Part shown: positions 7,500-63,586 of the stretch, piece after piece
How the letters are laid out: each line of letters begins with the position of its first letter
How positions within the stretch are numbered: the first letter of the stretch is position 1
NCBI GenBank assembly: GCA_031257015.1
Contig: JAIRPK010000022.1
Location: forward strand, 31,172-95,171
Reading direction: 5' to 3'
DNA from: Tannerellaceae bacterium
Lineage (GTDB): Bacteria > Bacteroidota > Bacteroidia > Bacteroidales > Tannerellaceae
DNA: 64,000 bases
The notes under the pieces: model-generated
Told to the model about the DNA's origin: nothing
Databases searched by the model: none
What the model saw: the letters and a program-made list of their open reading frames with translations, nothing else
Position numbers and translations under genes: made by a program

Positions 7500-8110
7500 A
7501 GGGAAATGCTCCCGAAAATTTCTGGAGGTTTTCCCCGCGAAGGAAATGCTTCAAAAAAAAATATTGAGATTTTCCCCCTTGAGGGAAAGTGTGCTGAAAA
7601 TTTCTAGAGGCTTTCCCCGCGAAGGAAATGCTTCAAAAAAAAATATTTAGATTTTCCCCCTTGATGGAAAGTGTGCTGAAAATTTCTGGAGGCTTTCCCC
7701 GCGAAGGGAATGCTTCAAAAAAAAATTATTTAGTTTTTCCCCCTTGAGGGAAAGTGTGCTGAAAATTTCTGGAGGTTTTCCCCGCGAAGGGAATGCTTCA
7801 AAAAAACTTCATTTAGATTTTCCCCCTTGAGGGAAAGTGTGCTGAAAATTTCTGGGAGCTTTCCCCGCGAAGGGAATGCTTCAAAAAAAAATATTGAGTT
7901 TTTCCCCCTTGAGGGAAAGTGTGCTGAAAATTTCTGGAGGCTTTCCCCGCGAAGGGAATGTGTCAAAAAAAAAATATTTAGTTTTTCCCCCTTGAGGGAA
8001 ATGCACCTGAAAATTTCGGGAAGCGTTCCCCCATGGGGGAAAGGCTCAATATTTTTTCAGGAGGGTTTCCACCTTTGGGGAAAGTGTCAGGAAAAAGTTT
8101 CGGGAGTGTT
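7500..8110. repeat. Array A: tandem 41-bp repeats in 82-83-bp dimers
   Basis: Seven dimers begin near 7529, 7611, 7693, 7776, 7859, 7941 and 8024. Each dimer has two 41-base halves. The first carries TTTCCCC-GCG-AAGGGAA followed by GCTTC and a run of eight or nine A. The second carries TTTCCCCCTTGAGGGAAA followed by GTGTGCTG, AAAATTT and CTGGAGG. Both halves hold a TTTCCC...GGGAAA inverted repeat. The left edge reads GCTCCCGAAAATTTC and the right edge AAAGTTTCGGGAG, so the array closes with an inverted copy of its opening. The last two units are degenerate. It lies just downstream of the leftward gene at 8128. Because 41 is not a multiple of three, translation would not give a heptad-like repeat protein. 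Confidence 0.92.
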
Positions 8111-8127
8111 TTTCTTATGTGCGGGGG

Positions 8128-10179
8128 CTAGATTTTCCATCGCATAAGGATTTGTATGTCGGTCTTGTCTTGACCTTCGATTTCTTCGAGGTCGGAGTTG
8201 ATGGTTTCTCTGTCGGAGTAATGGCTGTTGCCGATTTTCATGGTGAGGGCGAGGCACTTGAGGATGTCCCAGCGGATGAGGGTTGCGAGGCGGAGGCCTT
8301 TTCCGCAGAGTTGCGGGCGACTGTATGCGTGTGTAGCGCTCTTTTCGAGCGAGATGAGGCGGGTGGCGCCGTCGGGGGCGTTGAACCATGCGGCGTAGAG
8401 GTTTATTTGTAATGGCTGGCGGGGAATGGCGCATCCGGCGCTTTGCGATATGGCGATGCCTCGGCTGAGGGTTTCTGCTTCGGAGTATGCAACGCCGTCG
8501 GCGGCGGTTTTGAGGTCAATTGCGCCGAGGCGATATTGAGAGTGAAGGCGAAGACTGCGGCGGGAGCATGGCATGGTGGGGTGGGGGGCTGATGCAGAGG
8601 CGGCGTTCTTTTCCTTTTGCCGGTATTTGTATCGGATATAAAATGTGAGTTCGTCGGATTGCGGGTAATCGACTTGCGCCATATATTCGATGCCGGTGGA
8701 TGGCGCGTCAATGCCGAACTTGAGCCATGGGTGGCGGAAGCTGTCGATGTAGGCTGACAGCAGGAGGTCGGCGAAGGGGTTGAAGCGCATGGCGGCATAG
8801 AATCCTTCTTCGTTTTGAGTTGTGGTGCTTTGGCTGAAGGCGTTGGCGAAAAATGCCTGGTATTGCCTGTCATAGTATCGGTGCAGGAACAGGAGTTCGA
8901 GCCTTGAGGTTGGGTAGTATTTGATGGCGTTGAGCGTTGCGATGGCTTTATTTGCCGAGATGGCTGTTTCGCCGAATATCATGATGTTGCGCTTGCGAAT
9001 GGTATAGTCGGCGCTGATGTTTGTGTTTTCATGCCCGCGGAAGAGGAAGATGTTGCGTGGCTGCGGTTTGGGAATGATTTTGTGGTTGACGAAGCGGTAG
9101 TTTATGGCTGTGAGGCCGACGGAGAGTTCGGCGGAGGAGTAGAGGATGTTGCCTCCGATGGTTTGCATCTTCAGTGTATGTTTTTTTTGCATTTCGCGGG
9201 GAAGGTTGTGGAGGCCGTCCGTTTTTATGGATGCGATGTAGTTACTGTCGGTCACGGCTGCGTCGAGATGGCGGAGGGAATAGAAGGCGCTAATGTTTAT
9301 GTTCTTGCAGTCCAGGGTGAGGGCTGCTCCGCGCAGGAAGTCGTATTCGTTAGCGGATGCGTGGCGTGTGAATCCGTGTGTTCGCTTTTCCTGCCGGACG
9401 AGTGTTGACGTATGGCTGGGAACAAACTCCGAGCTGATCGTCAGTCCTTGTCCGAACGTGGCTTTGTAGTCGCCCAGGGCGATGCTTTGAAGTATGCCTG
9501 TGTTTTTAAGGAGGAAGTGAGCGGAGTAGAAATCGTATCCCTTGTTGTTTTTGTTGAGAAGGGCTTCGCCTGCATCTTTCTCTGCCGTTATGCCGGCTTG
9601 CAGTTTGTCGCGCAGGCTAACCGTGTACCTGAGCGAGTGGTAGAACTGTTCGCCGAGATATTTCCGGTTGGGGTATTGGGCGGCGATACTGTCCGGCAGG
9701 TCGCGGTAGCCCTTCTTTTGTTGCAGGCAGCGATCGTATCTCAACAGTATCTCATGGCGACCGTATTTCGGTAGATATTTGAGGGGAAGTGGCGGTCGGC
9801 CTCCTTCTTTTTCAGGAACGTGGACGAAAGGCAGGAGAAGTTCGCGCGTGGCATGATTTAATCCTTTAACGTCTTTAAGTTCATAAATGCTCACCATCTT
9901 GCCGTAACGTTTTATATGGGAAAGGATGCTGTTAATATGTTCGTCGGTGAGGAACGGAAGGCGTCGCAAGTCGCCGGCCTTAACGGTGTTGAGGTCAAAT
10001 GGATGTTCGGAAATGTCCGACAGTTCGGAGTAGAGCATTTCCATGCGGGTGTCATCCTCATCGTCGCCGGCCATTTCGTTAACATACTCGATCCATTTCC
10101 CGGAATGTTCAACCGTTTGGCTACGGCTTGCGGGGTAGCAGGCAAATAGCACGCTACATATTAATATACAGTGTCGCAT
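8128..10179 (-). CDS. Helix-hairpin-helix N-terminus plus outer-membrane barrel-like protein
   Basis: 683 residues with a signal peptide (cut near residue 20). An HhH/ComEA-like region is at ~55-135 (PFDLNTVKAGDLRRLPFLTD and VSIYELKDVKGL). A long part rich in alternating strands follows, with GQGLTISSEF, YDFLRGAAL and EYMAQVDYPQ, consistent with a beta-barrel. This architecture is common in Bacteroidales and has no established function. It is the second gene of a leftward operon, eight bases after the smaller barrel gene. Its 3' end abuts array A. Confidence 0.75.
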   Translation of the reverse strand: MRHCILICSVLFACYPASRSQTVEHSGKWIEYVNEMAGDDEDDTRMEMLYSELSDISEHPFDLNTVKAGDLRRLPFLTDEHINSILSHIKRYGKMVSIYELKDVKGLNHATRELLLPFVHVPEKEGGRPPLPLKYLPKYGRHEILLRYDRCLQQKKGYRDLPDSIAAQYPNRKYLGEQFYHSLRYTVSLRDKLQAGITAEKDAGEALLNKNNKGYDFYSAHFLLKNTGILQSIALGDYKATFGQGLTISSEFVPSHTSTLVRQEKRTHGFTRHASANEYDFLRGAALTLDCKNINISAFYSLRHLDAAVTDSNYIASIKTDGLHNLPREMQKKHTLKMQTIGGNILYSSAELSVGLTAINYRFVNHKIIPKPQPRNIFLFRGHENTNISADYTIRKRNIMIFGETAISANKAIATLNAIKYYPTSRLELLFLHRYYDRQYQAFFANAFSQSTTTQNEEGFYAAMRFNPFADLLLSAYIDSFRHPWLKFGIDAPSTGIEYMAQVDYPQSDELTFYIRYKYRQKEKNAASASAPHPTMPCSRRSLRLHSQYRLGAIDLKTAADGVAYSEAETLSRGIAISQSAGCAIPRQPLQINLYAAWFNAPDGATRLISLEKSATHAYSRPQLCGKGLRLATLIRWDILKCLALTMKIGNSHYSDRETINSDLEEIEGQDKTDIQILMRWKI

Positions 10180-10187
10180 GATTCGCG

Positions 10188-11006
10188 TTAAAAAAAGTAT
10201 GAAACGCCCATCCCGCTGCTTGCTCCCAGCAGGGGATGAAGGACGCCGGCTACGTCAATGCCGAATCGTAAATACTTGTATCCTATTCCGAAAGATGGGA
10301 GCGGCGGCGAGAGTTTCATTCCTCCCCTGATATGGAAGTCGTTGAACGCGGTACATTCCAGTCCGATGCCGCAGTCCAGCGCCTGGCCTTCCGCGTATCC
10401 GATATTTCCCGACACTAACACGGCCTCAGTCATCGTCCATTGGGCGCCGGCCTGAACTGTTCCGGGCGTAAACTTCTCTCGGCTGTGTTTTTCTCCAATG
10501 TCTGCCGAAGGATAATTCATAATCGTCAGTCCCAGCAGCAATCTCTCACTGCAATACCAGCTCAATCCGACATCGGCAGCGAGCGCCGACCGGCGATCTT
10601 CTTCATCCGTAGCGGTCTGTATCATTGCATACTCGACTGCCACGCCGAGCGCCCAGCGTTTGCCCAGTTGCCTGGCAGTTGCCCAGCGAAAGAGGCTTTC
10701 CCGATAATCATCATAGCCGAAAGATGCAACATGCAAGCCTGTCGAGACGAAATGCCCCGGCAGTATGCCTCCCGCATTGAGCGTGCATAGTTCTTTCAGC
10801 GAGTACCGGTTAAAACAGTTCATTTCCAGGCGTGCCCCTTCAGCCCAAGCCGCCAGCGAGGGGTTGAACAGAACGCTCGTGACCGTTTCGCTGCCGCCCA
10901 GCCCCAAGCTGCGCATGTCTCCGGTGCGGAGATTATCAAGAGAAAATAAGTGCGTATGAAAACATGTAAGGAATAAAAAACATAGAAGGTTTGGTCGTAT
11001 ATTCAT
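10188..11006 (-). CDS. Outer-membrane barrel-like protein, PorV/PorQ-like
   Basis: 272 residues with a signal peptide (~1-22). The mature N-terminus LRTGDMRSLGLGGSETVT...FNPSLAAW resembles PorV/PorQ and FadL-type proteins, in which an early Gly-rich stretch and an 'NP' motif precede the barrel. Amphipathic strands fill the rest and the chain ends in an aromatic residue (YFF), the usual signal for BAM insertion. Related Bacteroidota proteins serve type IX secretion, but no other T9SS gene lies here, so that role is only a possibility. Confidence 0.6.
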   Translation of the reverse strand: MNIRPNLLCFLFLTCFHTHLFSLDNLRTGDMRSLGLGGSETVTSVLFNPSLAAWAEGARLEMNCFNRYSLKELCTLNAGGILPGHFVSTGLHVASFGYDDYRESLFRWATARQLGKRWALGVAVEYAMIQTATDEEDRRSALAADVGLSWYCSERLLLGLTIMNYPSADIGEKHSREKFTPGTVQAGAQWTMTEAVLVSGNIGYAEGQALDCGIGLECTAFNDFHIRGGMKLSPPLPSFGIGYKYLRFGIDVAGVLHPLLGASSGMGVSYFF

Positions 11007-11030
11007 CTCATTATTATATTAAAAATCGTG

Positions 11031-11038
11031 CAAATATA
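11031..11038 (-). promoter_or_regulatory. -7 promoter element for the outer-membrane protein pair
   Basis: The minus strand reads TATATTTG (TAnnTTTG), 24 bases before the ATG at 11006. Confidence 0.5.
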
Positions 11039-11195
11039 GGCCGGAAAGTTCATTCTGGCAAGCGCGGAGAAGCTTTCGCGACCGTGTTCTTGCGTCTGGG
11101 GGCGTAATTTCTCTCATTTTCAGGAATAAGTTTAGCGGTAATAATATAATGTGTATCTCGCTTGCTTTCCTGTTGTGAATGGAAATGACGGGAAA

Positions 11196-11235
11196 CAAAA
11201 ATCTCCGCAAGGACATGGTCTTTTGCGGAGATTTC
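11196..11235 (-). terminator. Terminator after the TPR gene
   Basis: AAATCTCCGCAA and TTGCGGAGATTT form a 12-bp stem. On the minus strand it is followed by TTTTTGTTT, about 50 bases after the stop of the leftward TPR gene. Confidence 0.75.
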
Positions 11236-11286
11236 CGGATGCTGGGGGGACTGAATGTCTTGTTCTTTTCCGAGGGGACGAAGAGA

Positions 11287-13491
11287 TTAGTCCATCATAT
11301 ACCGTAGCTGGTCGAACATGAAGGGAACGTCGTTTTTGTCTATCCCGGCGGCGACGAGGTATGGGAGGTCTTTTTCAAAGTATTCGATGAAGGTGTCCAT
11401 ATCGACTTTGAAGTCATATTCTTCGTCTCCTTCCTGGCTTTTAATGGCGAGGAAGTAGTAGTTAATTGCTTCGGAGAATTTCTTTCTTGCCCAGGAGGTG
11501 TGGCCTGCATTGATGAAGTCGTGTACGGCGAGCGTGTCATTGTTCGCTCCTTCTTCCAGTAATTTCTTATAGTATTCAAAGGCTTGGTCATACTTGCCGG
11601 CGAGGAAGAGCGCCCATGCCAAAGGACGCCATGCACGATGAGTTTTTGTGTCCAGATAATCTACTTTGAAATAGTATTTGAGTGATTCTGCGTGCTCGCC
11701 GAGTTCGAGGTAGCAATGGCCGATGCTTAACTGGATAGATAGATTGTCGGGGTTCATACTTTCAAGTCTGCGATAGTACTCCAGCGCTTGGGCGGGGCGT
11801 CCTGTTGCACGGTAGCATCCGGCAATTCGTTTGATGAGCCATTTGCTCTGGGTGTTGATGAGGTCAGCCTGTATGTATTCGGCAATGGCGGCGTCGATGT
11901 CTCCTTTCATTTGCTGGCAGTATCCGGCTTTCTGCATGAGCATGTCGTTGTTTGGGTCTGCGATTTTCAGCTTCATGAATAAGTCGAAGGCTTCGTCGAA
12001 GTAGTTTTTTTTCAGATAGTATTCGGCTATGATGGAGAGGCTTTCGTTGTCGGACAGGTATGGACGGAGGATGGGAAGGTTATAAAAGTCGAGGGGCAAG
12101 AGGAAAATGTCGTTGTAGTCTCCGCGGAAGTGATGAAGCTTGAAGAACCGGTAGAGGTCTTGGATACATTGGCTGACGATAACGTCGAATTTGCCCTTTT
12201 CGCCGACGATTATGTCCTTGAATTGCGACATGGCTTCTATCGTGTTGCCGTGCAGCTGGCTGAGGAAGCGTTGTCGTTCGGGCGACGGCTGTCTGATAAT
12301 GGAGAGGAGGAAGGAATATTTGTCGGAGTTGCAGAGGAAGATTAGGGCGTCGGTTATTGACCGCAGGCCGTTTCGTGTATCGTCATCTTCTAGTTCTTCG
12401 AGGTTGGAGTGGTTGGACATGAATGGGAGGAACCAGTTGCTCATGTCGCGGAAGAAATCGAAGTGTTTTAGATAGGCAAATGTAGAGTGCATTACGTCGG
12501 CTCCTTCCATTTGAAGTTCGTTGTATTCTTCGATTGATTTTCCGAGAGCTGTATCTTCCAGCATTTCTTGCCATTCGGGATTTTCCTCCTCGAACATTTC
12601 GGGGTTAAAGTCATGGATATTCATCTTGTTCATGTTGGGGACGTATTTTGTCATTTTGGGAATGATTTCATCATGAAGCTTGCGCGTTATTTTGTCCGTT
12701 TCCTTGGCAAGGATGAATTTCAGGGTGATGGTACGCAGGCGTTTGGCGAATCCGGGAGTTTCGGCCAGGGCTGCCAGCCGATTGCTTATTTGTGGATAAA
12801 ACCCAGTGCGTTTGTGATGTATATATAGCATGATTAAGAGGCCTATCAGCGCTCTGGCACGCACTTCTTCATGTTTTCCTTCGTCGGAGGCATGGAGAAG
12901 GAGCAGAAACTTTTCCTTGTCAAAGTAGGAGAAGAGGCTTAACACCAGGGCTGAGACTACCTGGCAGCCGGTCGTGCAGGGAAGTTTTTCATCATCCAAT
13001 ATCTCGGTGATGTCATTGTATTCATCATGGGAAATCCGAGCAGAGAGCCATATACGGTTAAATATTTGTATCAGGGTCTTCTCGTAATAGTAGTTAGATT
13101 CGTATTCACATACGACGGATACTCTATTATACAGATCTTTAATAGCCTGGTTGCCGTCAAAGTATGAACGGTTCTTCCTCAACGCATAATAAACCGGCGG
13201 GGCTTCACATTCTTCCATCAGGCGCAGCTTGGTTAGTTCCGCAATTTCGTACAGCGAGCTTAGCATATCGTCATATATTTGCTTCTGCATAGGATCCGGC
13301 GCATAGATAAGGCGATAGTTCAACATCCGTTTATATGTTTCTTCCAGTTCAAGAACCTTGTCGAGGGAAATCGCATCGGGAGCATGATTCAGGAAACTTT
13401 GCAGGCAACCAAAAGCATTTTTGAGTTCTTTCTTGTCGAGCAACTCCATTATTCGCTCATAAGAAAGGTTTATGTTCTGTTTTGTTATCAT
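11287..13491 (-). CDS. Large tetratricopeptide-repeat protein
   Basis: 734 residues, no signal peptide, mostly helical. The C-terminal half has clear TPR units, e.g. AEYYLKKNYFDEAFDLFMKLKIADPNN (~485), AAIAEYIQADLINTQSKW, QALEYYRRLESMNPDNLSIQLSIGHCYLELGEHAESLKYY and FEYYKKLLEEGANND (~640). The N-terminal half is helical without recognised motifs. It is probably a cytoplasmic scaffold; partners are unknown. It is transcribed alone and leftward from a promoter that diverges from lepA. Confidence 0.8.
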   Translation of the reverse strand: MITKQNINLSYERIMELLDKKELKNAFGCLQSFLNHAPDAISLDKVLELEETYKRMLNYRLIYAPDPMQKQIYDDMLSSLYEIAELTKLRLMEECEAPPVYYALRKNRSYFDGNQAIKDLYNRVSVVCEYESNYYYEKTLIQIFNRIWLSARISHDEYNDITEILDDEKLPCTTGCQVVSALVLSLFSYFDKEKFLLLLHASDEGKHEEVRARALIGLLIMLYIHHKRTGFYPQISNRLAALAETPGFAKRLRTITLKFILAKETDKITRKLHDEIIPKMTKYVPNMNKMNIHDFNPEMFEEENPEWQEMLEDTALGKSIEEYNELQMEGADVMHSTFAYLKHFDFFRDMSNWFLPFMSNHSNLEELEDDDTRNGLRSITDALIFLCNSDKYSFLLSIIRQPSPERQRFLSQLHGNTIEAMSQFKDIIVGEKGKFDVIVSQCIQDLYRFFKLHHFRGDYNDIFLLPLDFYNLPILRPYLSDNESLSIIAEYYLKKNYFDEAFDLFMKLKIADPNNDMLMQKAGYCQQMKGDIDAAIAEYIQADLINTQSKWLIKRIAGCYRATGRPAQALEYYRRLESMNPDNLSIQLSIGHCYLELGEHAESLKYYFKVDYLDTKTHRAWRPLAWALFLAGKYDQAFEYYKKLLEEGANNDTLAVHDFINAGHTSWARKKFSEAINYYFLAIKSQEGDEEYDFKVDMDTFIEYFEKDLPYLVAAGIDKNDVPFMFDQLRYMMD

Positions 13492-13519
13492 ATCTACTAA
13501 AATTCGTGTATTTAATGTC

Positions 13520-13527
13520 CAAAAGTA
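13520..13527 (-). promoter_or_regulatory. -7 promoter element for the TPR gene
   Basis: The minus strand reads TACTTTTG, 28 bases before the TPR start. It is back to back with the lepA promoter. Confidence 0.5.
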
Positions 13528-13548
13528 AAGGTTTCCACTCTAAATTCC

Positions 13549-13556
13549 TATCTTTG
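13549..13556 (+). promoter_or_regulatory. -7 promoter element for lepA
   Basis: TATCTTTG is an exact TAnnTTTG match 17 bases before the lepA ATG. Confidence 0.6.
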
Positions 13557-13573
13557 CGACAAAATAACAAGCA

Positions 13574-15361
13574 ATGAAAAATATTCGTAACTTTTGTATT
13601 ATAGCTCACATTGATCATGGAAAAAGCACTTTGGCCGACCGCCTGCTTGAATATACCAAAACCATTGAAGCGAATAACTTACAAGCGCAAATTCTGGACG
13701 ATATGGACTTGGAACGTGAACGCGGAATAACAATCAAGAGCCATGCCATACAAATGGAATACATATATAATAATGAAACTTACACTCTCAATCTAATAGA
13801 TACTCCGGGGCACGTGGATTTCTCCTACGAAGTCTCTCGCTCCATCGCTGCATGTGAAGGGGCTTTGCTTATTGTGGACGCCGCGCAAGGCATACAGGCT
13901 CAAACAATCTCCAACCTTTACATGGCTATTGAGCATGACCTGGAAATCATCCCTGTCATTAACAAAATTGACCTCCCAAGCGCTATGCCTGACGAAGTGG
14001 AAGACCAAATAATCGAACTCCTCGGATGTTCACGCGAAAGTATCCTCCGCGCCAGCGGAAAAACAGGGGAAGGCGTATATCAAATACTTGAGGCTATCGT
14101 AAAGAAAGTCCCATCTCCCGCCGGAAATCCGGATGCGCCGCTACAATGCCTGATATTCGACTCGGTTTTCAATTCTTTCAGAGGCATAATCGCATATTTC
14201 AAAGTGGTAAATGGCATAATCCGCAAAGGAGACATGGTTAAATTCATTGCTACCGGCAAAGAATATGATGCCGACGAGGTAGGCATCCTGAAACTCGAAA
14301 TGTCCCCACGCAACGAAATAAGAACGGGCGACGTCGGCTACATTATTTCAGGTATCAAATCGTCAAATGAAGTAAGAGTAGGAGACACAATCACGCATAT
14401 CAAAGGCGGAGCAACAGAAGGAATCGCCGGTTTTGAAGAAGTCAAACCGATGGTCTTCGCAGGTGTTTATCCAATCGAAAGCGAAGACTTTGAGAATCTA
14501 CGTTCATCGCTCGAAAAACTCCAGCTCAACGACGCATCGCTTACATTTCAGCCGGAAAGTTCCGTTGCGCTCGGATTCGGCTTCCGTTGCGGATTCCTTG
14601 GATTGCTGCACATGGAAATTGTACAGGAAAGGCTTGAACGGGAGTTTGACATGAATGTAATCACAACTGTGCCTAACGTTTCTTACCATGTTTATGACAA
14701 AAAGGGCAATTGTATCGAAGTCCACAACCCAGGCGGCCTTCCTGACCCTACGCTAATAGATCGTATCGAAGAACCTTATATTCGCGCCTCCGTTATCACT
14801 AATACGACTTATATAGGCCCGATTATGACGCTATGTCTGGGCAAACGTGGAATCCTGGTCAAACAAGATTATATCTCCGGCGACAGGGTTGAAATCTTTT
14901 ATGACCTTCCTCTTGGCGAAATCGTAATTGACTTTTACGATAAGCTGAAAAGCATATCCAAGGGGTATGCCTCTTTCGACTATCATTTGCATGACTTCAG
15001 ACCGGGAAAGCTAATCAAGCTGGACATCCTTCTTAATGGCGAACCGGTTGACGCTCTTTCCACATTAACGCACGTTGACAACAGCGTTTCCTTCGGACGG
15101 AAAATGTGCGAAAAATTAAAAGAACTCATTCCTCGCCAGCAATTCGACATAGCTGTGCAAGCAGCCATCGGATCAAAAATCATCGCCCGCGAAACAATTA
15201 AAGCCGTTCGCAAAGACGTAACTGCCAAATGCTATGGCGGCGATATTTCCCGCAAACGCAAACTTTTGGAAAAACAAAAGGAAGGCAAAAAACGCATGAA
15301 GCAAATTGGAACCGTCGAAGTTCCGCAAAAAGCCTTCCTCGCCGTTTTGAAACTGGACTGA
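13574..15361 (+). CDS. lepA: Elongation factor 4 (LepA)
   Basis: 595 residues, full length. G1 [13 protein letters not shown] (~10-22), switch region [13 protein letters not shown]3 DTPGHVDF (~77), G4 NKIDLP (~128). EF-G-like domains follow, then the LepA-specific C-terminal domain with [27 protein letters not shown] and the basic tail [28 protein letters not shown]. It is a ribosome-associated GTPase that acts on elongation or initiation when translation stalls. It is a single-gene unit. Confidence 0.98.
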
Positions 15362-15380
15362 TCTTTCTAATCGCGTGCCG

Positions 15381-15428
15381 GCTTCAATTTTTACAGTTTT
15401 TCCTTGAAGCAAAAGGTTCGCGTTTTTT
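15381..15428 (+). terminator. Possible terminator after lepA
   Basis: GCTTCAA (15381-15387) pairs with TTGAAGC (15404-15410). An eight-T run follows, but only after a 12-base spacer, so this is a weak candidate. Confidence 0.35.
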
Positions 15429-15652
15429 TTATGTCTTATTTTTCGCCATATTCTCTTTTATCTATAAAAATGCTGGCTCGGAGCTTGGGATCTCGTCAAA
15501 CAATATTTACAGTCGGTGTCCCTAAATATAATTTTAGAATTATAACCAATCCATGGCATCACAAATATTAAGACGCGGAATAAGCGATGCGAATTTTTGA
15601 TATAAATAATAAAGTTATTGCCAGCCAGGCCATTAATTTTTCATTCAACAGT

Positions 15653-15870
15653 TTACCGATTGATTTTCTGAAATAACTCTACGGCACTTTCCACACCGAT
15701 GCGCGAACTTCCGTCACCGGTGCGCGAACTTCCGTCACCGGTGCGCAGACTTTCCGCACCGGTGCGGAAATCTTCGGAACACACGACAATACCCCCGGTG
15801 ATAATTCTAATTTTAATGTTCCAGGATTGCTGAGAAATGTTCGGCATTTCTTTTTCAGATTCGCTTGCGA
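15653..15870 (-). repeat. Array B': four 21-bp units with flanks homologous to array B
   Basis: Four 21-base units lie at 15684-15767. On the minus strand each is GCGCACCGGTG followed by (C/A)CGGAAGT and variants; the core CGCACCGGTGCG is a perfect 12-base palindrome. Both flanks match array B at 40840-41310. One side shares GCCGTAGAGTTATTTC exactly. The other aligns over about 90 bases at roughly 65-70% by eye (AGCGAA...AAAAAGAAATG, CAGCAATC, GGAACATTA). An open minus-strand frame covers the locus but has no ATG upstream of the conserved part. The next stretch, 15871-16212, shows no gene. Confidence 0.85.
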
Positions 15871-16212
15871 TTCTCCTTTTCCGTGAAATTCCTGCGCCAA
15901 GAAAAAGACTGAATTTTACTGATGATTGCCAAATACTCAGGAATAAATTATGATTTATGTTTATGCCTAATTGACAGTTCCGTTTTAAAATACATGAATC
16001 AGCTCCAGGTTGCAAACAAGACTTCTTGCAAACAGAGGCTATGGCTATACATTTTTATTGAAAGATGTTTACAGAAATATGCGATTCTCCCTTAATATTC
16101 AATCTGGCTGCTACGGTTTGTAACCTTAATTTTGACGGTAAACGATTTTTGGAAGAGTAATAGTTTCACGAAATCACGTTGCATCTCCAAGCGCGATTGT
16201 CATGTTTGACAC

Positions 16213-16251
16213 ACAAAAAGGCCGTTGCTTCAGTATGTTTCGCAACGGCCT
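16213..16251 (-). terminator. Terminator after queF
   Basis: AGGCCGTTGC and GCAACGGCCT form a 10-bp perfect stem, followed on the minus strand by a T5 run, 35 bases after the queF stop. Confidence 0.85.
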
Positions 16252-16285
16252 CCTGTTAGATATATTTAAATAAAAGAATACTGAT

Positions 16286-16741: not shown

Positions 16742-16753
16742 TGCTAGTTTTAT

Positions 16754-18196: not shown

Positions 18197-18223
18197 GAAT
18201 AATTACGAGAGTATAAATTAATA

Positions 18224-18673: not shown

Positions 18674-18697
18674 ATTCAGAGTGTTTTTAATTGTTTT

Positions 18698-25942: not shown

Positions 25943-26029
25943 TGTAAAACTTAACGTTTAGAGTTAGAAATTATGAATAATCCGCCTCTTTCCTTCAGGT
26001 TTCGGCCGGACATTACACCGTATCTTCTG

Positions 26030-26037
26030 CAAATTTA
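26030..26037 (-). promoter_or_regulatory. Candidate internal promoter for ftsW and the downstream division genes
   Basis: The minus strand reads TAAATTTG (TAnnTTTG), 88 bases upstream of the ftsW ATG. It could restart transcription after array C. No good -33 TTTG was seen. Confidence 0.35.
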
Positions 26038-26115
26038 ATGAATCTAATGAAGAGATTACAATTGTCTGTTTTATTTCAATCTTGACTTTCTTGTCGAAAA
26101 CAAATATTATTTTCA

Positions 26116-26144
26116 TTTGGATGTTTATTATTTTTGTATATTTG
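26116..26144 (+). promoter_or_regulatory. Candidate plus-strand promoter reading into array C
   Basis: TTTG (26116-26119), 17 bases, then TATATTTG (26137-26144) resembles the -33/-7 pair of Bacteroidota promoters. An ATG follows at 26175 and array C at 26207. Transcription from here would be antisense to the mur-fts run. Confidence 0.4.
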
Positions 26145-26206
26145 TACAGTTTTAACAGTATATCAATAGTTTAAATGAACTTTATTTATAATAAAATAAA
26201 TTATAT

Positions 26207-26479
26207 GGGTCCTCGAATGAGTTGCATAGGTACTCAAATGATTCATACGGGCACTCGAACAAGCAGAACGGGTACTCAAATGAGTCGGAGGGGTACTCGA
26301 ATGAATTGTACGGGTACTAAAATAAACCAGACGGGTACTCGAACAATTTATATGGGTACTCAAATAAATTGGACGAGTACTCGAATGAATTAAACGAGTA
26401 CTAAAATGAATCGGATGAGTACCCGTTTAAATCGAACGAGTACTCGAATAAGTTAAATTAGTACTAATCCAAGCTCTTC
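26207..26479. repeat. Array C: twelve 21-bp units between murD and ftsW
   Basis: Twelve consecutive 21-base units (26207-26458) and a partial thirteenth. Each starts with G(G/A)GTACTC and continues GAATGA or AAATGA, then a variable six to seven bases. The GTAC core is the best conserved part, and in later units it extends to the palindrome GAGTACTC. A 72-codon frame starting at ATG 26175 crosses the first units, giving a heptad of type (G/S)T(R/Q)-hydrophobic, but it stops at 26393 inside the array, so the array as a whole is not protein-coding. It lies inside an otherwise tightly packed cell-wall operon. Confidence 0.9.
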
Positions 26480-26588
26480 TAATACTGGAATAAAACCGCC
26501 GGATGCTCCTCTTCCTTCAATAGATGTTAAATAAAATCAGCCAACAGGCTGTCGCAACTAAACAGAGTTTTTTTCAATCATCATAGAT

Positions 26589-40839: not shown

Positions 40840-41315
40840 GAATTACAAGCGAGTTGCAAAAAGAAATTCCTGACAGCTCCAGGCAATCTCTGAACGTTAG
40901 AATCCGGACTATTTCCAAGGGTCTGCGCACCGGTGCGGAAATTTCGCGCACCGGTGACGGAAGTTCGCGCACCGGTGCGGAAGGTCTGCGCACCGGTGCG
41001 GAAAGTTCGCGCACCGGTGCGGAAAGTTCGCGCACCGGTGACGGAAGTTCGCGCACCGGTGCGGAAAGTCTGCGCACCGGTGACGGAAGTTCGCGCACCG
41101 GTGCGGAAAGTCTGCGCACCGGTGCGGAAAGTCTGCGCACCGGTGCGGAAAGTCTGCGCACCGGTGACGGAAGTCTGCGCACCGGTGACGGAAGTCTGCG
41201 CACCGGTGACGGAAGTCTGCGCACCGGTGCGGAAAGTCTGCGCACCGATGCGGAAAGCTCGCGCACCGGTGACGGAAGTGCCGTAGAGTTATTTCCCAAA
41301 GCCGGTCAGGGCGCT
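40840..41315 (+). repeat. Array B: seventeen 21-bp CACCGGTG units with flanks shared with B'
   Basis: Seventeen exact-length units fill 40925-41281. Each is GCGCACCGGTG followed by either CGGAAAGTCT-type or ACGGAAGTTC-type sequence. The core is the palindrome CGCACCGGTGCG. The flanks are related to those of B' (15653-15870). TTACAAGCG on the left (around 40843) reappears as CGCTTGTAA on the right (around 41314). Frames are open on both strands through the array. The plus frame would give the heptad RTG(A/D)(E/G)S(L/S), but it has no ATG start and opens inside the susD terminator. It sits between susD and the convergent epimerase gene. Bases 40572-40839 outside the susD terminator show no gene. 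Confidence 0.92.
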
Positions 41316-46131: not shown

Positions 46132-48287
<2,156 letters not shown>

Positions 48288-52531: not shown

Positions 52532-52534
52532 TGT

Positions 52535-54199: not shown

Positions 54200-54294
54200 C
54201 GTATTATAATTATTTGTATTGATTTAAGGACAGCTAAAATACATTTTTCCAGTATAATCTCAAATGGCGAACGCCTGGAAAAGCCTTATACTTT

Positions 54295-55551: not shown

Positions 55552-55562
55552 ACAGAACTGGA

Positions 55563-56762: not shown

Positions 56763-56813
56763 TTCGATGATATTTTGATTGACAGTTTACTACTTTTTAT
56801 TCGATTTGTAACG

Positions 56814-56821
56814 CAAAGATA
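56814..56821 (-). promoter_or_regulatory. -7 promoter element for the aminotransferase-permease operon
   Basis: The minus strand reads TATCTTTG, 51 bases before the aminotransferase ATG. Confidence 0.55.
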
Positions 56822-56887
56822 ATCAGGAATCAGGAATCGGAAAGAATGAATCGCGAAATTCACGCCACAGCCCACGCCTCAAGCCAC

Positions 56888-57186
56888 AAAACATTCACCC
56901 GCAAGCCGCATGACGAATTTCAATAAATTTATTTCATCCCTGCAACATGCACGACTACTTTCAACATGTTTTTTTGCCACCTGCATGATGCAGTACAGTT
57001 TTGAACACGTTTTTTTTACTCCCGCACGCTGCATGGCGATTTTCAACATGTTTTTTTCTTCCCTGCGCGATGCAGGACAGTTTTTAACATGTTTTTTCTG
57101 CTCATGCACGCTGCATGGCGATTTTCAACACATTTTTTTCTTCACCGCGCGTTGTGGGACGACTTTTAACACGTTTTTTTTGCCCG
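56888..57186. repeat. Array F: six 41-bp units with phased T tracts
   Basis: Units start at 56922, 56963, 57004, 57045, 57086 and 57127, every spacing exactly 41, with partial units at both ends. Units 2-6 begin with AACA(T/C)(G/A) and a tract of six to eight T. A Gly-Cys-like GC-rich block follows, alternating between CTGCATGATGCAG-type and CACGCTGCATGGCG-type, so the true dimer is 82 bases as in array A. T-tract length varies, but compensating changes keep the unit at 41. It lies between the divergent aminotransferase and susC genes. Confidence 0.92.
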
Positions 57187-57365
57187 CCTACGGCTAAAGC
57201 CACAAATCAACTGTTCATAGCCGGAGCCGTCCCGACAGGGAAAGGGCTGAACATGTAAACATTCGCCGACGGAGTATTCCGAATCGAAACTTACATTATT
57301 TATTCATGGAATAAATCGCCAATAGAAATATAAATATTGAAAATAATACACATGCAAAAAGCCCC

Positions 57366-57373
57366 TACCTTTG
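57366..57373 (+). promoter_or_regulatory. -7 promoter element for the second susC-susD operon
   Basis: TACCTTTG (TAnnTTTG). It would give a leader of more than 550 bases before the susC ATG at 57941, long enough for leader-based control. Confidence 0.45.
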
Positions 57374-57469
57374 CATCGAAATAAACATTAAGTACTATCA
57401 AATAAACATTAATTAAAACTAAATTTAAACAGAGTATTTAACCAAAGCCTTAACTATATTACGTTTCTT

Positions 57470-57510
57470 GACAAAGCGCTCATTTGCATGTAGTAAATGA
57501 GCGCTTTGTC
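57470..57510. other. Perfect 16-bp hairpin in the susC leader
   Basis: GACAAAGCGCTCATTT (57470-57485), a nine-base loop, then its exact complement AAATGAGCGCTTTGTC (57495-57510). No T run follows on either strand, so it is not a standard terminator. It may be a structured leader RNA or a DNA-binding palindrome. Confidence 0.8.
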
Positions 57511-57940
57511 GTACTGAAAAAATCATTGCGAAAGACAACTGAAAGATATTGTCAATGCCCAGCGCCATGCCCAAGCCGTCAAAGCATATTGAAGTAAAAA
57601 CCGGCGTATTAAACCGCTCCATTTTAAATGATTTTTTTACTATTGTTTTTCAAATACAGCCAGCTTGCTTTTGAAAAAATCCAGCTTGCGCAGATGATAA
57701 TCGTACAAATACTTTATAAACGGCAGACGGAAATATGCAGAGAAAAAAAACGTACAATTAAATTGCGCATATTCGGCATACTGGCTGTTACTTGACCGAG
57801 GAGACGTAACATCAAAAATATCAGGCATTAATGGCACGCATGTTAATTTAATTGATAGCTTTGTATTATTGTCAATTTAATTGTACGATTATTCTGACAT
57901 ACCTTTATTTATAGTAATAACCTTAAAATTAAGCTTTTGT
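57511..57940. other. Rest of the susC leader; possible decayed minus-strand ORFs
   Basis: Two adjacent 65-codon minus-strand frames (57640-57837 and 57425-57622) are open. The first encodes FNCTFFFSAYFRLPFIKYL and DYHLRKLDFFKSKL, which looks protein-like, but I cannot assign it. They could be remnants of one broken gene or chance frames. Bases 57187-57365, upstream of the promoter, show nothing. Confidence 0.3.
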
Positions 57941-60900
57941 ATGACAAACAAATCATGGTTTTTTATTTCTTTTCTCCTGCTGGCGCAGTGGTTTGCGGCA
58001 GTGGATGTTTATGCCCAGCATACTGTGTCTGGAATGGTAAATGATGCGGCCGGGATTCCGATTATCGGCGCGAATGTAATCGAAGAGGGGACAAATAATG
58101 GAGTGATTACTGATATGGACGGAAAGTTTTCTCTGGCGGTATCCAATCTTAATGTAACGCTGACGGTTACTTATGTCGGTTATCAGTCGTTGATATATCC
58201 GTTGAAGGGGAAGGCATCGGCGATTATTGTTTTGCAGGAAGACTTGTTGAATCTGGACGAGGTCGTCGTCATCGGCTATGGCGCGGTTAAGAAGCGAGAC
58301 TTGACGGGATCAGTGTCGTCAGTCAAGGGAGAGAAACTTCAGGAGACAGCCTCGTTCAGCACGCATGAGGCATTGCAGGGACGAGCCGCGGGCATATCTG
58401 TTATGCGCACAAATGCCGTTCCGGGCGGCTCGACATCTATTCGTATTCGCGGAAACAGGTCGTTGAAAGCGACAAATGATCCGCTGTACGTCGTGGACGG
58501 TATTCCGATTGTCGTAGGGCTGAATGAGTTGAGCGCGTCGGACATTGAATCGGTCGAGATATTGAAGGACGCTTCCGCTACTGCAATCTACGGCTCGCGT
58601 GGAGCAAATGGCGTTATAATCATCTCTACAAAAAAGGGAAAGGCAGGACGGGCGCAAATCGACTATAACGGATATTACGGAGTGCAGCAGGCAGCGCGAA
58701 CCGTCGATATGATGAACGGAGGCGAATGGGTCGAGCTTGTACGTGAAGCCAACCGCGCAACAACGAAAACCACGCCATACCCTCTCATCCCAACCCTGGA
58801 CTGGGACAAAAAAATCGGATACTTCACTGCTGACAAGGCCGTTATCGACAAAATATCCATGGGATACGACGAGCAGGGCATTTGGCATCCGGAGAGAGTG
58901 CCGTATAACGACTGGATTAACGAAGCGTTGAGAGAGGCGCCAATTCAGAATCACGAGATAAGCGTTCGCGGAGGAACGGACAAGATAAAGATGCTCGCGT
59001 CAGCCACTTATTTCGACCAGATGGGAATTGTCAAGGGGCAGGATTACTCCAGATATTCAGTGAGACTGAATTTCGACTGGAACGTCACCGACAGAGTTAC
59101 TATTGGAGCGCAGACGCAATTCTCGCACTTCGACCAATCAGCCGGGACTAACATTTATCACGATTCAAGAGGCGTCTATCCACTGGCGGACATATATGAT
59201 GAGAACGGGAAGATGACGACGTCCCGACCGGGCAATGATCCTGTGGTCTGGAACTATCTTCTCAATATTGACAATACAAAGCTCATCCGCAGAAAGGACA
59301 GGTTCCTCGGCAGCTACTACGTTGAAATTAAACTTCCGCTTGACATCAATTACCGCACCAATGTGGGTATTGACGTCGGACCGTATTACAACGACAATTT
59401 CTATGGGGCGTTAAGCTCCGACCGTTCCGGAAGTCTGGCCAGAGCCGAGAACAAAGGCGACAACCGAAGGATGTACACATGGGAGAATTTACTGTTCTAC
59501 AACAAGTCCTTCAATAATAAACACACCATCGGCCTCACCTTTCTCCAATCCATCCAGCAGGAAACATACGAATCGTTCGAAATCAGAGTTAAAGACCTCC
59601 CGTATGAAAACCAATTATGGTATAACGTCGGATCAGCACAAACCATTGAGGGAGTCAGCAGCAATTACAGCCAATGGAAACTCGCCTCGTTCATGGGGCG
59701 TGCCAATTATACGCTTATGGATAAATATCTGCTGACCGTCTCGGCCAGATACGACGGCTCATCCAGGCTTGCACCTGGACATAAGTGGGTGCTCTTTCCC
59801 TCCGCTGCACTGGCTTGGAGAATAAAAGAGGAGAACTTTCTTAAAGACGTGAGTGCGCTCAGCAACCTTAAATTGCGCATCGGCTACGGAATAACAGGAA
59901 ACACGGCCATCGACCCATACAAGACGCAAGGCAACCTGAGCTACGGACGATATATCTACGGCTCGCAAGGAGTACTGTCATTCTATCAGAATGAGATGCC
60001 TAACCCATATCTCACATGGGAGAAAACCACGCAATGGAACGCCGGCATTGACTTCGGCTTCCTCAATGGCCGTATCGGTGGTGTTATCGACTTCTATCTC
60101 CAGAAAACGGAAGATATGCTAATGGACAGGCAGCTACCAATCGTCTCCGGCTTTTACGGCGTAACATCCAACATCGGCAAGATTAACAACAAGGGAATAG
60201 AACTCACTGTCAACACGCAGAACATAACCGGAAAAAACTTCTCATGGACAACTGACCTTATCCTCGCAGCCAACAAGGAGGAAATCGACGAACTCTACAA
60301 CGGCAAGCTCGACGATGTAGGCAACAGCTGGTTCATCGGCAAGCCAGTGCGCGTCTTCTACGACTATAAGGCTGACGGCATCTGGCAGCTGGAGGATAAA
60401 GCAGAACTGGAGAAATGGGGAGGCGCCTTCAAGCCCGGAGACGTCAAAATTGTCGATACCAACGGAGACTATAAGATTACGTCCGAAGACAGGTTCGTGC
60501 TCGGACAGGTCGATCCCAAATTCAACCTCAGCTTGAGCAATTACCTCGCCTTCCGCAACTTTGACTTCAACCTGTTTCTCACAGGTTCATTCGGACAAAT
60601 GAGGAAGTTCGACCGCAACTGGAGCCTCAACGGACGGTATAACTGCGCTAGAGTAAACTACTGGAAGATCATTGGCGAAGATGCCGACGGCAATCCGGTT
60701 AGCAACAAGAGCAACGAGGCCCCGCGCCCCAACCGCGACTTTGAAAACCCAAACTATATCGGCGCCCTCTACTACTCCGACGCTTCTTTCATGCGCATCG
60801 GACAGGCAACCATCGGTTATAATTTAAATGCCGCAATATTGAACAAGCTACACATCAGCAAGCTGCGCATATACGCTTCCGTGCAGAACGCTTATGTTTT

Positions 60901-61009
60901 TACATCATTCGAGGGCATTGATCCCGAACTCGGCAATCAAAGCGATAACCAGGGCTTCAATGAACCGATGCCAAGAACTTATCTTCTCGGACTTAATATC
61001 AGTTTCTAA
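57941..61009 (+). CDS. SusC/RagA-family TonB-dependent outer-membrane transporter
   Basis: The frame is open from a TTG at 57881, but ATG 57941 begins a proper signal peptide (MTNKSWFFISFLLLAQWFA), giving 1022 residues. Carboxypeptidase-D-like domain (VSGMVNDAAGIPIIGANVIEEGTNNGVITDMDGKFSLAV), TonB box and plug (LDEVVVIGYGAVKKRDLTGSVSSV; IRIRGNRSLKATNDPLYVVDGIPI; ASATAIYGSRGANGVIIISTKKG), then the barrel ending in NISF. It pairs with the SusD gene 24 bases downstream. The nearby rhamnosidase-like gene hints at a rhamnose-containing glycan, but the two face each other and need not be co-regulated. Confidence 0.95.
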   Translation: MTNKSWFFISFLLLAQWFAAVDVYAQHTVSGMVNDAAGIPIIGANVIEEGTNNGVITDMDGKFSLAVSNLNVTLTVTYVGYQSLIYPLKGKASAIIVLQEDLLNLDEVVVIGYGAVKKRDLTGSVSSVKGEKLQETASFSTHEALQGRAAGISVMRTNAVPGGSTSIRIRGNRSLKATNDPLYVVDGIPIVVGLNELSASDIESVEILKDASATAIYGSRGANGVIIISTKKGKAGRAQIDYNGYYGVQQAARTVDMMNGGEWVELVREANRATTKTTPYPLIPTLDWDKKIGYFTADKAVIDKISMGYDEQGIWHPERVPYNDWINEALREAPIQNHEISVRGGTDKIKMLASATYFDQMGIVKGQDYSRYSVRLNFDWNVTDRVTIGAQTQFSHFDQSAGTNIYHDSRGVYPLADIYDENGKMTTSRPGNDPVVWNYLLNIDNTKLIRRKDRFLGSYYVEIKLPLDINYRTNVGIDVGPYYNDNFYGALSSDRSGSLARAENKGDNRRMYTWENLLFYNKSFNNKHTIGLTFLQSIQQETYESFEIRVKDLPYENQLWYNVGSAQTIEGVSSNYSQWKLASFMGRANYTLMDKYLLTVSARYDGSSRLAPGHKWVLFPSAALAWRIKEENFLKDVSALSNLKLRIGYGITGNTAIDPYKTQGNLSYGRYIYGSQGVLSFYQNEMPNPYLTWEKTTQWNAGIDFGFLNGRIGGVIDFYLQKTEDMLMDRQLPIVSGFYGVTSNIGKINNKGIELTVNTQNITGKNFSWTTDLILAANKEEIDELYNGKLDDVGNSWFIGKPVRVFYDYKADGIWQLEDKAELEKWGGAFKPGDVKIVDTNGDYKITSEDRFVLGQVDPKFNLSLSNYLAFRNFDFNLFLTGSFGQMRKFDRNWSLNGRYNCARVNYWKIIGEDADGNPVSNKSNEAPRPNRDFENPNYIGALYYSDASFMRIGQATIGYNLNAAILNKLHISKLRIYASVQNAYVFTSFEGIDPELGNQSDNQGFNEPMPRTYLLGLNISF

Positions 61010-61033
61010 CATCATCTTAAAAAAATCAGTATT

Positions 61034-62911
61034 ATGACATCACACATATATATGTATATCCGCTCAATCATTGCAGCTATATCCTTAACTGCTCTTCTTA
61101 ACGCCTGCGACGATTATCTGGACGAGAAAGTGGTCAGCGGCGTTTCATATGACTTCTTTGAAACCAAAACAGGAATGGAAAGCGCTGTCAACGGGGTTTA
61201 TACATCCATGAGATGGTACGTCGGAGGCGAACGTTATTACTGCTTCACCGAGTACGGCACGGACTACGTCTGGGAAGGTGCCGACGGAGGACAAAAAGAC
61301 GCCTTCAACAAGTACAGCGTACAAATGAACGCAACTGCAGGACTGCTATACGAGTTCTGGGAAAATAATTACAAGGGTATCAACCGAGCTAACACCGCTC
61401 TTATGTATCTCCCGAAAGTAAACGATATGACTGACGCTGAAAAGCACACGAGAGAAGGAGAACTAAGGTTCATGCGAGCTTACTTCTACTTCGACCTTGT
61501 GCAACATTTCGGCTCAATCCCGCTGAACACCAAAGGCAACGTCTCCGAGGCAACAACAGACTTTAAGCGTGCTACGGTTGCAGACATATACGAGGCAATC
61601 ATTGCAGACCTCCGACAATCTTTCGAGATTCTGCCGGACGCCGCCCAAAAGGACATCCGCGGACGGGCAGGCAAATGGGCAGCCGCGCATCTTCTCTCAA
61701 AAGTTTATCTGACTAGAGGCTCTGCCGTCAAAGATCAGCGAGGACAGAAAGGAACAGACATGGACAGCGCCGCATACTTTGCCGAGGCTGTAATCAACTC
61801 CGGCAAGTTCGCCCTTGAAAATGACTACCGTACAACGTTCGACCTGCGATTAAACAAAACATCTGCCGAAACAATCTTTGCCATCGAGTTCACCACCGAC
61901 GTTCTCTTCAACGGTGACGGCAACCGTATGCACCTCTACTGGGTGCCTACTTACGAGAATTTGGCCGGGATGCAGCGCGACCTACAACAGGGACGTGCAT
62001 GGAAACGTGTCAGGCCAACCCCATATTTCCAAACCGAACTTTTTAACAGCCTCACGGACGCCCGCCTTTACAAAATGTTCAGATGGATATTCCAGGCTAA
62101 CAAAGAATCGTCAATTCCCATCTGGCAAGAGAAGTATTATTACATCGACGAGAGTGGAAAAACAACTGACGACTTGCTCTATGTCACACCGCCCGACCTC
62201 GTCGGAAAACCTAAATTCAATACAGGCGACACCGCCGCTTATTTCATAGCCAAATACTACGGAGCGAAAGACCATCGCAGCAAGGTTATTGACGCCGAAA
62301 AGGACAGACTCCTGCAACTCGACGTCGCCCGCTCGCCATACACCCTCATTCCCGTTGACAACAACACCAATCACTTCTTCCCATGCCTCCTTAAATGGCT
62401 CGACACTGACCGCCCGGACATGAACTACGAGCAAGGCTCGCGCAACTTCGTACGTATGCGGCTGGGGGAAACATATCTCCTCGCTGCCGAGGCCTGCGGG
62501 CGCAAAGGAGACTTCAATAAGGCTGCCGAGTATATCAACGTCGTCCGCCGACGGGCTGCATACAAGGACGGCGAGACCAAACCAAAGGAATGGATTACCA
62601 TCGAGGGGGGCGACCCTGCCATGGCGCTTGCTTCAACCGAAGAGGCCAACCTCATCAGCCCTGACGACATCGCCGCCGACTTCACGTCATTCATCCTTGA
62701 CGAACGATGTCGCGAACTCTTCGGAGAGATGAACCGCTGGGAAGACCTCGTCCGAACGGAGACTCTCTACGACCGAGTCCGAAAGTTTAATCCCGATGCT
62801 GCCGCCGGCATTAAGGAGTTCCACAAGCTACGGCCGATTCCGCAGAATCATATCGACAGACTGTCGCCGGCTCCTCCAATAGAGGAGGCGCAGAACTTCG
62901 GATACTTCTAA
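61034..62911 (+). CDS. SusD/RagB-family surface lipoprotein
   Basis: 625 residues. Lipobox LLNAC gives the lipidated Cys at 25. SusD features: CDDYLDEKVVSGVSYDFFETKTGMESAVNGVY, GELRFMRAYFYFDLVQHFGSIPL (~145), RMRLGETYLLAAEACGRKGDFNKAAEYINVVRRRAAYK (~480) and FILDERCRELFGEMNRWEDLVR near the end. It is the binding partner of the SusC protein just upstream. Confidence 0.94.
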   Translation: MTSHIYMYIRSIIAAISLTALLNACDDYLDEKVVSGVSYDFFETKTGMESAVNGVYTSMRWYVGGERYYCFTEYGTDYVWEGADGGQKDAFNKYSVQMNATAGLLYEFWENNYKGINRANTALMYLPKVNDMTDAEKHTREGELRFMRAYFYFDLVQHFGSIPLNTKGNVSEATTDFKRATVADIYEAIIADLRQSFEILPDAAQKDIRGRAGKWAAAHLLSKVYLTRGSAVKDQRGQKGTDMDSAAYFAEAVINSGKFALENDYRTTFDLRLNKTSAETIFAIEFTTDVLFNGDGNRMHLYWVPTYENLAGMQRDLQQGRAWKRVRPTPYFQTELFNSLTDARLYKMFRWIFQANKESSIPIWQEKYYYIDESGKTTDDLLYVTPPDLVGKPKFNTGDTAAYFIAKYYGAKDHRSKVIDAEKDRLLQLDVARSPYTLIPVDNNTNHFFPCLLKWLDTDRPDMNYEQGSRNFVRMRLGETYLLAAEACGRKGDFNKAAEYINVVRRRAAYKDGETKPKEWITIEGGDPAMALASTEEANLISPDDIAADFTSFILDERCRELFGEMNRWEDLVRTETLYDRVRKFNPDAAAGIKEFHKLRPIPQNHIDRLSPAPPIEEAQNFGYF

Positions 62912-63067
62912 CCTCCGTGAACTTCTTTGCTCCGAATGAATGATGGAGGGCAGAGAATGTGAGTATTTATTTTTCCCTTTATAACCGGAGTTTTGGATAA
63001 GCAGGCGAAGTCTCCTTCTGTTTTGGGGGCTTGCGATGCTCTGCAAAAGCAAAAAAATGTTCTCGAA

Positions 63068-63586
63068 GTGTCTCACGAGATGCTCAGAGCGTCTCACGAG
63101 ACGCTACGAGTGTCTAACGATACACTTCGAGTGTTTCACAAGACACTCCGAGTGTTTCACAAGACGCTCCGAGTGTTTCACAAGACGCTCCGAGCGTTTC
63201 ACAAGACGTTCCGAGTGTTTCACGAGACGCTCCGAGCGTTTCACGAGACGTTCAGAGCGTCTAACGAGACGTTCCGAGCGTTTCACGGGACGCTCCGAGC
63301 GTTTCACGAGATGCTCCGAGCGTTTCACAAGACGTTCAGAGCGTTTCACAAGACGTTCAGAGTGTTTCACGAGACGTTCAGAGCGTTTCACGGGACGCTC
63401 CGAGCGTTTCACGAGACGCTCCGAGCGTTTCACAAGACGTTCCGAGTGTCTAACGAGACGTCCAGAGCGTTTCACGAGACGTTCCGAGTGTCTCACGAGA
63501 CGCTCCGAGTGTCTCACGGGACGTTCAGAGCGTCTTACAAGACGTTCAGAGCGTTTCACGAGACGTTCAGAGCGTTTCGGCTGAAG
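63068..63586. repeat. Array G: twenty-four 21-bp units
   Basis: Twenty-four units of exactly 21 bases fill 63068-63571, with a partial unit after them. Each reads G(C/T)GTTTCAC(G/A)AGACG followed by (C/T)TC(C/A)GA. The junction GAGACGCTC-C-GAGCGTTTC is a near-perfect palindrome. Frames are open on both strands for over 150 codons, giving serine/arginine- or Phe/His/Arg-rich heptads. Several open frames at once argue against coding. It lies between susD and the convergent rhamnosidase-like gene. Confidence 0.93.

What the first reader, a model, noticed from the sequence alone, without database searches (positions are those of the whole stretch)
7500..63586. Seven intergenic repeat arrays with different sequences share a unit length of 21 or 41 bp
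Arrays A, D and F have units of 41 bases (A and F as 82-base dimers); B, B', C, E and G have units of 21. Apart from B and B', the sequences look unrelated. Random satellite formation would give scattered unit lengths. A shared period near two or four helical turns (10.5 bp each) suggests a common mechanism acting on DNA geometry: a protein binding one face of the helix, a nucleoid-organising array, or a replication or repair process that copies fixed-length steps. Most units hold palindromes, and almost every large intergenic gap has one array. I know of no described family with this behaviour.
Basis: partly seen in the sequence, partly recalled or inferred. Interest (0 to 1): 0.9.

Follow-up and report, generated by a model that had tools for sequence, protein, structure and literature searches.

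The report
Mirror-symmetric DNA arrays with fixed steps
The gaps between genes in this Bacteroidales bacterium hold about one array of short mirror-symmetric repeats per 8 kb of the DNA sampled, and although the sequences differ between array families and between species, 94 of 103 arrays have a unit of 21-23 or 41-43 bases, which likely reflects a DNA-copying process that works in whole turns of the double helix.

Summary
TRF finds all eight window arrays, with units of 21, 41-42 or (A) 83 bp. In 864 kb of the same genome 94 of 103 arrays (score >=100) have units of 21-23 or 41-43 bp; arrays cover 3.7% of it. In 371 kb from 13 other genomes of the genus it is 19 of 19; in 400 kb from outside the order, 0 of 5. 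Array G's sequence occurs in 1 of 18 genomes of the genus, its own.

New here: the arrays are dyad-symmetric (88 of 91 beat column shuffles). A 21-bp unit has dyads one helical turn apart, a 42-bp unit two turns, so one rule covers both lengths. Most sampled arrays belong to dispersed families. No inverted repeats outside the arrays, no target duplications, no REP transposase.

Closest known: BrickBuilt (23 nt) and PgRS (41 nt) of Porphyromonas gingivalis, described as MITEs. My reading: self-spreading dyad minisatellites that probably grow by fold-back (hairpin) slippage. The mechanism is inferred, no protein was found, and a test for selection on spacing was negative.

The parts
7498..8031 (.). 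Array A: 82/83-bp units made of two ~41-bp halves, 6.5 copies; decayed units run on to about 8110
15686..15766 (.). Array B: 21-bp unit around CACCGGTG, 3.9 copies, downstream of lepA; same family as B'
26207..26451 (.). Array C: 21-bp unit (42 and 84 also fit), between murD and ftsW; weakest symmetry of the set
   Evidence: relatives at 2 other places of the genome
34790..35054 (.). Array D: 41-bp unit with two different dyads, 6.4 copies, upstream of rsmH; its two ends are inverted copies of each other
   Evidence: three relatives in the sample
40925..41277 (.). Array B': 21-bp unit GCGCACCGGTGCGGAAAGTTC, 16.8 copies, downstream of a SusC/SusD pair
   Evidence: cluster of 8 arrays
46141..46561 (.). 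Array E: 21/42-bp units around CAACATC-N-ATGTTG, bounded by a 19-bp perfect inverted pair (46141-46159, 46543-46561)
   Evidence: about 9 other places of the genome
56898..57181 (.). Array F: 41/82-bp units with ACATGT and TGCATG-type dyads, upstream of a SusC gene
   Evidence: two relatives in the sample
63073..63578 (.). Array G: 21-bp unit CACGAGACGCTCCGAGCGTTT, 24 copies, downstream of a SusC/SusD pair; largest family

Best explanation
These are dispersed, dyad-symmetric minisatellites that likely spread as selfish or neutral DNA and likely grow by fold-back (hairpin) slippage during replication, in steps that would keep neighbouring symmetry axes one or two helical turns apart. Shown: nearly every array tested matches its own reverse complement better than column shuffles do; dyads cluster near 10-11 and 20-22 bp apart, which gives units of about 21 and 42 bp; families are scattered through gaps between genes without visible regard to gene orientation; array G's sequence is private to this genome while the unit length is shared across the genus. 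Inferred: the slippage itself, the reason for the helical register, and how families move between sites.
For: 88 of 91 arrays are more self-complementary than column shuffles (0.633 v 0.489); also 31 of 33 in other genomes of the genus and 15 of 15 band arrays in named Bacteroidales, against 10 of 22 arrays of other periods in that same DNA. As single-strand DNA, 42-nt pieces are more stable than column shuffles in 60 of 63 short-unit and 27 of 27 long-unit arrays; families with long units are AT-richer (GC 0.381, n 19, v 0.507, n 16; p = 0.003), as a hairpin-stability rule predicts. Inverted units in 7 of 86 arrays (0 of 86 shuffled), five of them at or just beyond an array end; ends are inverted copies in 11 of 91 arrays v 0 of 455 control pairs; 19-bp inverted pair at E. 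In short arrays fewer singletons at dyad-paired columns (ratio 0.616 v null 0.855, 0 of 60 shuffles as low). Arrays equally dense per base in tandem, convergent and divergent gaps. Array C lies in a 646-bp murD-ftsW gap that is -1 to 260 bp in 69 other Bacteroidales.
Against: Stability alone predicts a spread of lengths, not two sharp peaks with none between 24 and 40. The AT-rich/long-unit link is not seen in the other genomes of the genus (4 short, 15 long). Dyad-paired columns are not protected in 41-43-bp arrays (25 of 60 shuffles as low). In the one-contig genome G021 only 5 of 8 band arrays beat the symmetry control. Array ends resembling inverted repeats follow partly from symmetric units. 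Edges are not clearly more diverged than centres (0.845 v 0.854-0.873 identity to consensus). No copy-number change was observed directly.
Confidence: 0.4

Rival explanations
1. Passive inheritance: all arrays descend from old arrays; sequences drift and are homogenised, while unit length changes only by rare indels, so the period is simply kept.
For: Families mix diverged unit types in one array at the same period (family G); gaps per mismatch are normal, which would give the observed 20.5-23-bp wander; the dyad half-units unite 21 and 42.
Against: Over the many sequence turnovers between genera the period should wander further than 21-23; yet 22 is the commonest period in the named Bacteroidales set and 22, 23 and 41 are reported in P. 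gingivalis. Array C sits in a gap that is short in relatives.
Confidence: 0.2
2. Protein-bound arrays: a nucleoid, topology or replication protein that recognises dyads on one face of the helix makes selection hold the spacing.
For: Dyad spacing near multiples of 10.5 bp; fewer singletons at dyad pairs in short arrays.
Against: Different sequences in every family and in every species looked at; 22-, 23- and 43-bp units drift off one helical face; no indel depletion; no candidate protein found (only Y1 transposase and SbcD were searched for).
Confidence: 0.2
3. MITEs: the arrays are cores of non-autonomous transposons, as proposed for BrickBuilt and PgRS of P. gingivalis.
For: Same unit lengths and dispersal; 12 of 63 flanks of family G share sequence with another copy; B and B' share an end of about 20 bp; E has a 19-bp inverted pair at its ends.
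Against: Inverted repeats outside arrays no better than control (13.7 v 13.8, 91 arrays); no target-duplication signal (8 of 92 v 0.107 in controls); the one IS5-type end found lies 499 bp from an array (chance about 1.2); most family-G flanks are unshared.
Confidence: 0.15
4. RNA function: arrays act as transcript hairpins, for example terminators or stabilisers.
For: Arrays fold better than shuffled sequence as RNA (95% of 84).
Against: Equal density in tandem, convergent and divergent gaps (44 per 118 kb, 16 per 35 kb, 24 per 68 kb); in tandem gaps the transcribed strand is the less foldable one (35 of 44, p = 8e-5), in line with the base skew of array-free gaps; no Rfam match in the window but the tRNA.
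Confidence: 0.05

Closest known systems
BrickBuilt minisatellite-MITE of Porphyromonas gingivalis (PMC4596501; abstract, sections 5 and 8, and part 1 of 2 of section 7 read)
   Same: Bacteroidales; [quoted passage not shown]
   Different: There one family with leader, tail and IS5-like terminal inverted repeats, 0.44% of the genome. Here 37 blastn clusters in 28% of the genome, 3.7% of the DNA sampled, no terminal inverted repeats found outside arrays.
PgRS/MITE464 (41 nt) and the 41-, 23- and 22-nt repeats of P. gingivalis W83 (as reported in PMC4596501; the W83 genome paper itself was not held)
   Same: The same unit lengths as here, in the same order.
   Different: No shared length rule or dyad rule is stated in the sections read; sequences were not compared here.
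REP/BIME and REPIN elements (PMC3733652 passages only; PMC3116915 listing only)
   Same: Small intergenic palindromes in species-specific families, sometimes reiterated in tandem.
   Different: Linked to Y1 (RAYT) transposases, which were not found in this genome; no strict 21/42-bp unit described in what I saw.
Tandem repeats of archaeal Borgs (PMC9879509, passages only)
   Same: Pervasive, fast-evolving arrays, with virtually all sequences unique.
   Different: About half lie in genes; A-rich and near-perfect; no fixed unit length or dyad symmetry in the passages read ('palindrom' 0 occurrences).

Membership tests
MITE (BrickBuilt/PgRS type) | Terminal inverted repeats outside the tandem core | tested here: not met
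   Score 13.7 v 13.8 in controls, 0 of 91 arrays >=24. E alone has a 19-bp inverted pair at its ends.
MITE (BrickBuilt/PgRS type) | Target-site duplications | tested here: not met
   Direct repeats >=7 bp at 8 of 92 arrays (0.087) v 0.107 in controls.
MITE (BrickBuilt/PgRS type) | Shared leader and tail | tested here: inconclusive
   12 of 63 family-G flanks fall in clusters of 6, 2, 2 and 2; at least one pair reads like the end of duplicated genes.
MITE (BrickBuilt/PgRS type) | Parent transposase in the genome | not tested
   IS5-type ends of P. gingivalis: 1 match, 499 bp from an array; transposase genes were not searched except Y1.
REP/REPIN with RAYT | Y1 (RAYT) transposase | tested here: not met
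   PF01797: 0 matches in G000, 93% complete.
REP/REPIN with RAYT | GTAG or CGTC tag at one end of the palindrome | not tested
   Not looked for.
CRISPR array | Unique spacers between repeats | tested here: not met
   Units are contiguous and the whole unit repeats. cas genes were not searched.
Minisatellite | Tandem head-to-tail units of about 10-100 bp | tested here: met
Minisatellite | Copy-number variation within a species | not testable with these tools
   No second strain of this species at hand.

The most novel reading that the evidence does not exclude
Bacteroidales have a DNA-copying process with a built-in ruler of one or two helical turns that makes mirror-symmetric satellites from whatever sequence it starts on; each species therefore grows its own satellite families, all on the same 21-bp grid.
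Probability: 0.25. Interest if true: 0.9.

Novelty: new variant of a known kind. Interest (0 to 1): 0.66.

Why it matters
Bacterial minisatellites are usually treated case by case as slippage products. Here one order shows a general rule (dyad-symmetric units on a 21-bp grid) with sequences that differ between the species looked at, so the length should come from a mechanism or a constraint and not from the sequence. It would tie the separately described 22-, 23- and 41-nt repeats of P. gingivalis to one class, and it makes the question of what sets a satellite's unit length testable in bacteria that can be grown.

Tried and rejected
Loss of the hairpin nuclease SbcCD as the cause: rejected for G000, which has SbcD over the cut-off. 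Array-rich G021 has none over the cut-off, but neither do G008, G018 and G058, which had no array in 20 kb each.

RNA hairpin function: the strand bias goes the wrong way and matches background skew. Indel depletion as proof of selected spacing: not found. Insertions and deletions that cancel within a unit (82 units with both v 19.4 expected): set aside, because aligning replaced blocks gives the same signal. A general 42-bp copying step inside 21-bp arrays: clear in pooled lags, but only p = 0.045 and 25 of 46 arrays when tested, driven by a few families. Covariation of the two arms in family G: present at pairs 4, 8 and 10 from the dyad, weak, absent or negative at the others; it may be subfamily structure.

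Conserved position: upstream of the ABC-F gene 5 of 13 genus-mates have an array of 20-23 or 41 bp (scores 67-158; two of the 13 loci are cut short there), upstream of rsmH 1 of 8, downstream of lepA none of 17 (some cut short); too few for a claim. Only the murD-ftsW site could be compared widely; two of the 69 other gaps there hold a 22-bp array (L136 score 124, L152 score 52). Array-free partners in pairs of Bacteroides and others are not clean empty sites. Palindromicity by stretch score: 47 of 94 arrays beat the best of 40 shuffles, weaker than the whole-array test. Arrays of other periods outside the order also beat the symmetry control, slightly (4 of 4, 0.480 v 0.446).

Papers: PMC4596501 abstract, sections 5 and 8, part 1 of 2 of section 7; PMC5771137, PMC3733652 and PMC9879509 passages only; all others listings only. 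Nothing on a shared 21/42-bp unit rule was seen in searches of an open-licence library; that does not show that none is in print.

Full report
What is there. TRF confirms the arrays named in the finding at their coordinates. Autocorrelation gives 21 and its multiples for B, B', C, E and G, and 41 with 82 (A also 83 and 165) for A, D and F. The window is part of contig C23 of a 3.12 Mb, 73-contig genome, 93% complete. This is an inference from lengths.

Genome-wide. Arrays make up 32 kb, 3.7%. Stretches were placed on contigs known from the array-G search and some covered known array-G sites, which inflates that family; the first set plus window gave 42 of 50. By blastn the 103 arrays fall in 37 clusters; 14 clusters hold more than one array, 80 arrays in all. 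C and E, single in the sample, have relatives elsewhere in the genome. With a rough gene caller 84 arrays were in gaps between called genes, 2 inside called genes and 17 at stretch edges.

Other genomes. In 371 kb from 13 other genomes of the genus 19 of 19 arrays are in the band; nine come from one genome, G044, and five genomes had none. In 360 kb of other genomes of the family it is 12 of 20, eight of them in G021. In 1.4 Mb around rsmH of 80 named Bacteroidales it is 15 of 38, with 22 bp the commonest single period; some of these records are also genus members, so the sets overlap slightly. In 400 kb from 17 genomes outside the order it is 0 of 5. Array G's sequence is in none of the other 17 genomes of the genus.

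Symmetry. Joined units match their own reverse complement at 0.633 against 0.489 for column-shuffled versions, in 88 of 91 arrays. In other genomes of the genus it is 31 of 33, in G021 only 5 of 8, in other Tannerellaceae 4 of 4, in the named Bacteroidales 15 of 15, while arrays of other periods in that same DNA score 10 of 22. Strong dyad centres number 424 against 47 in shuffles for short arrays and 115 against 28 for long ones; spacings cluster at 10, 21-22, 32 and 42-43 bp in short arrays, and at 20-21 and 41-43 bp with some near 10 and 32 in long ones. A periodic array that is symmetric about one axis per unit has a second axis half a unit away, so a rule of one or two helical turns between axes yields units of about 21 and 42 and leaves out 31.5.

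What it is not. No inverted repeats outside arrays, no target duplications, no IS5-type ends close to arrays, no Y1 transposase; no visible preference for gene orientation; no RNA-strand preference beyond background skew; no Rfam family in the window but the tRNA; SbcD is present.

Mechanism. For fold-back slippage: single-strand DNA stability at 42 nt, and longer units in AT-rich families of this genome (not seen in the rest of the genus); inverted units in 7 of 86 arrays, five at or beyond an end; ends that are inverted copies in 11 of 91 arrays, partly a consequence of symmetry; the inverted pair at E; fewer singletons at dyad pairs in short arrays, not in long ones. Against a selected spacing: gaps per mismatch 0.114 inside arrays v 0.128 in nine pairs of shared flanks. 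Against stability alone: two sharp length peaks. I hold fold-back slippage at 0.4 and leave the helical register as the open question.

Turnover. The murD-ftsW gap is -1 to 260 bp in 69 other Bacteroidales (median 24) and 646 bp here, with array C. Upstream of the ABC-F gene 5 of 13 genus-mates carry arrays of the same length classes (one of 20 bp) and other sequence.

Known relatives. BrickBuilt (23 nt, 19 copies, predicted stem-loops, strain-variable copy number), PgRS (41 nt) and the 41-, 23- and 22-nt repeats of strain W83 are described for P. gingivalis (PMC4596501). The class is therefore not wholly new; the general length rule, the number of families and the lack of MITE ends are what this adds.

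Noticed in passing
46141-46159 and 46543-46561: A perfect 19-bp inverted pair bounds array E; the 19-mer occurs nowhere else in the window or in the other fetched loci.
   Followed up: partly
25943-26588: Array C lies inside the cell-wall/division gene cluster between murD and ftsW, a gap of -1 to 260 bp in 69 other Bacteroidales.
   Followed up: yes
L014, L020, L047, L081, L086, L089, L100 (contig ends of G000): Several contigs begin or end inside an array, so arrays seem to break the assembly and their true lengths may be larger.
   Followed up: no
L040:688-3116 and L090:5932-6651: Long-unit tandem repeats (352 and 328 bp); the first clusters with a 22-bp family, so it may be a higher-order repeat of it.
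   Followed up: no
genomes of genus g12: SbcD over the cut-off is present in some genomes of one genus and absent in others, including array-rich one-contig G021: a natural comparison for hairpin processing.
   Followed up: no
L007, L009, L010, L012 and others of family G: Arrays of this family often hold a block of one unit type followed by a block of a second type, both of 21 bp.
   Followed up: partly
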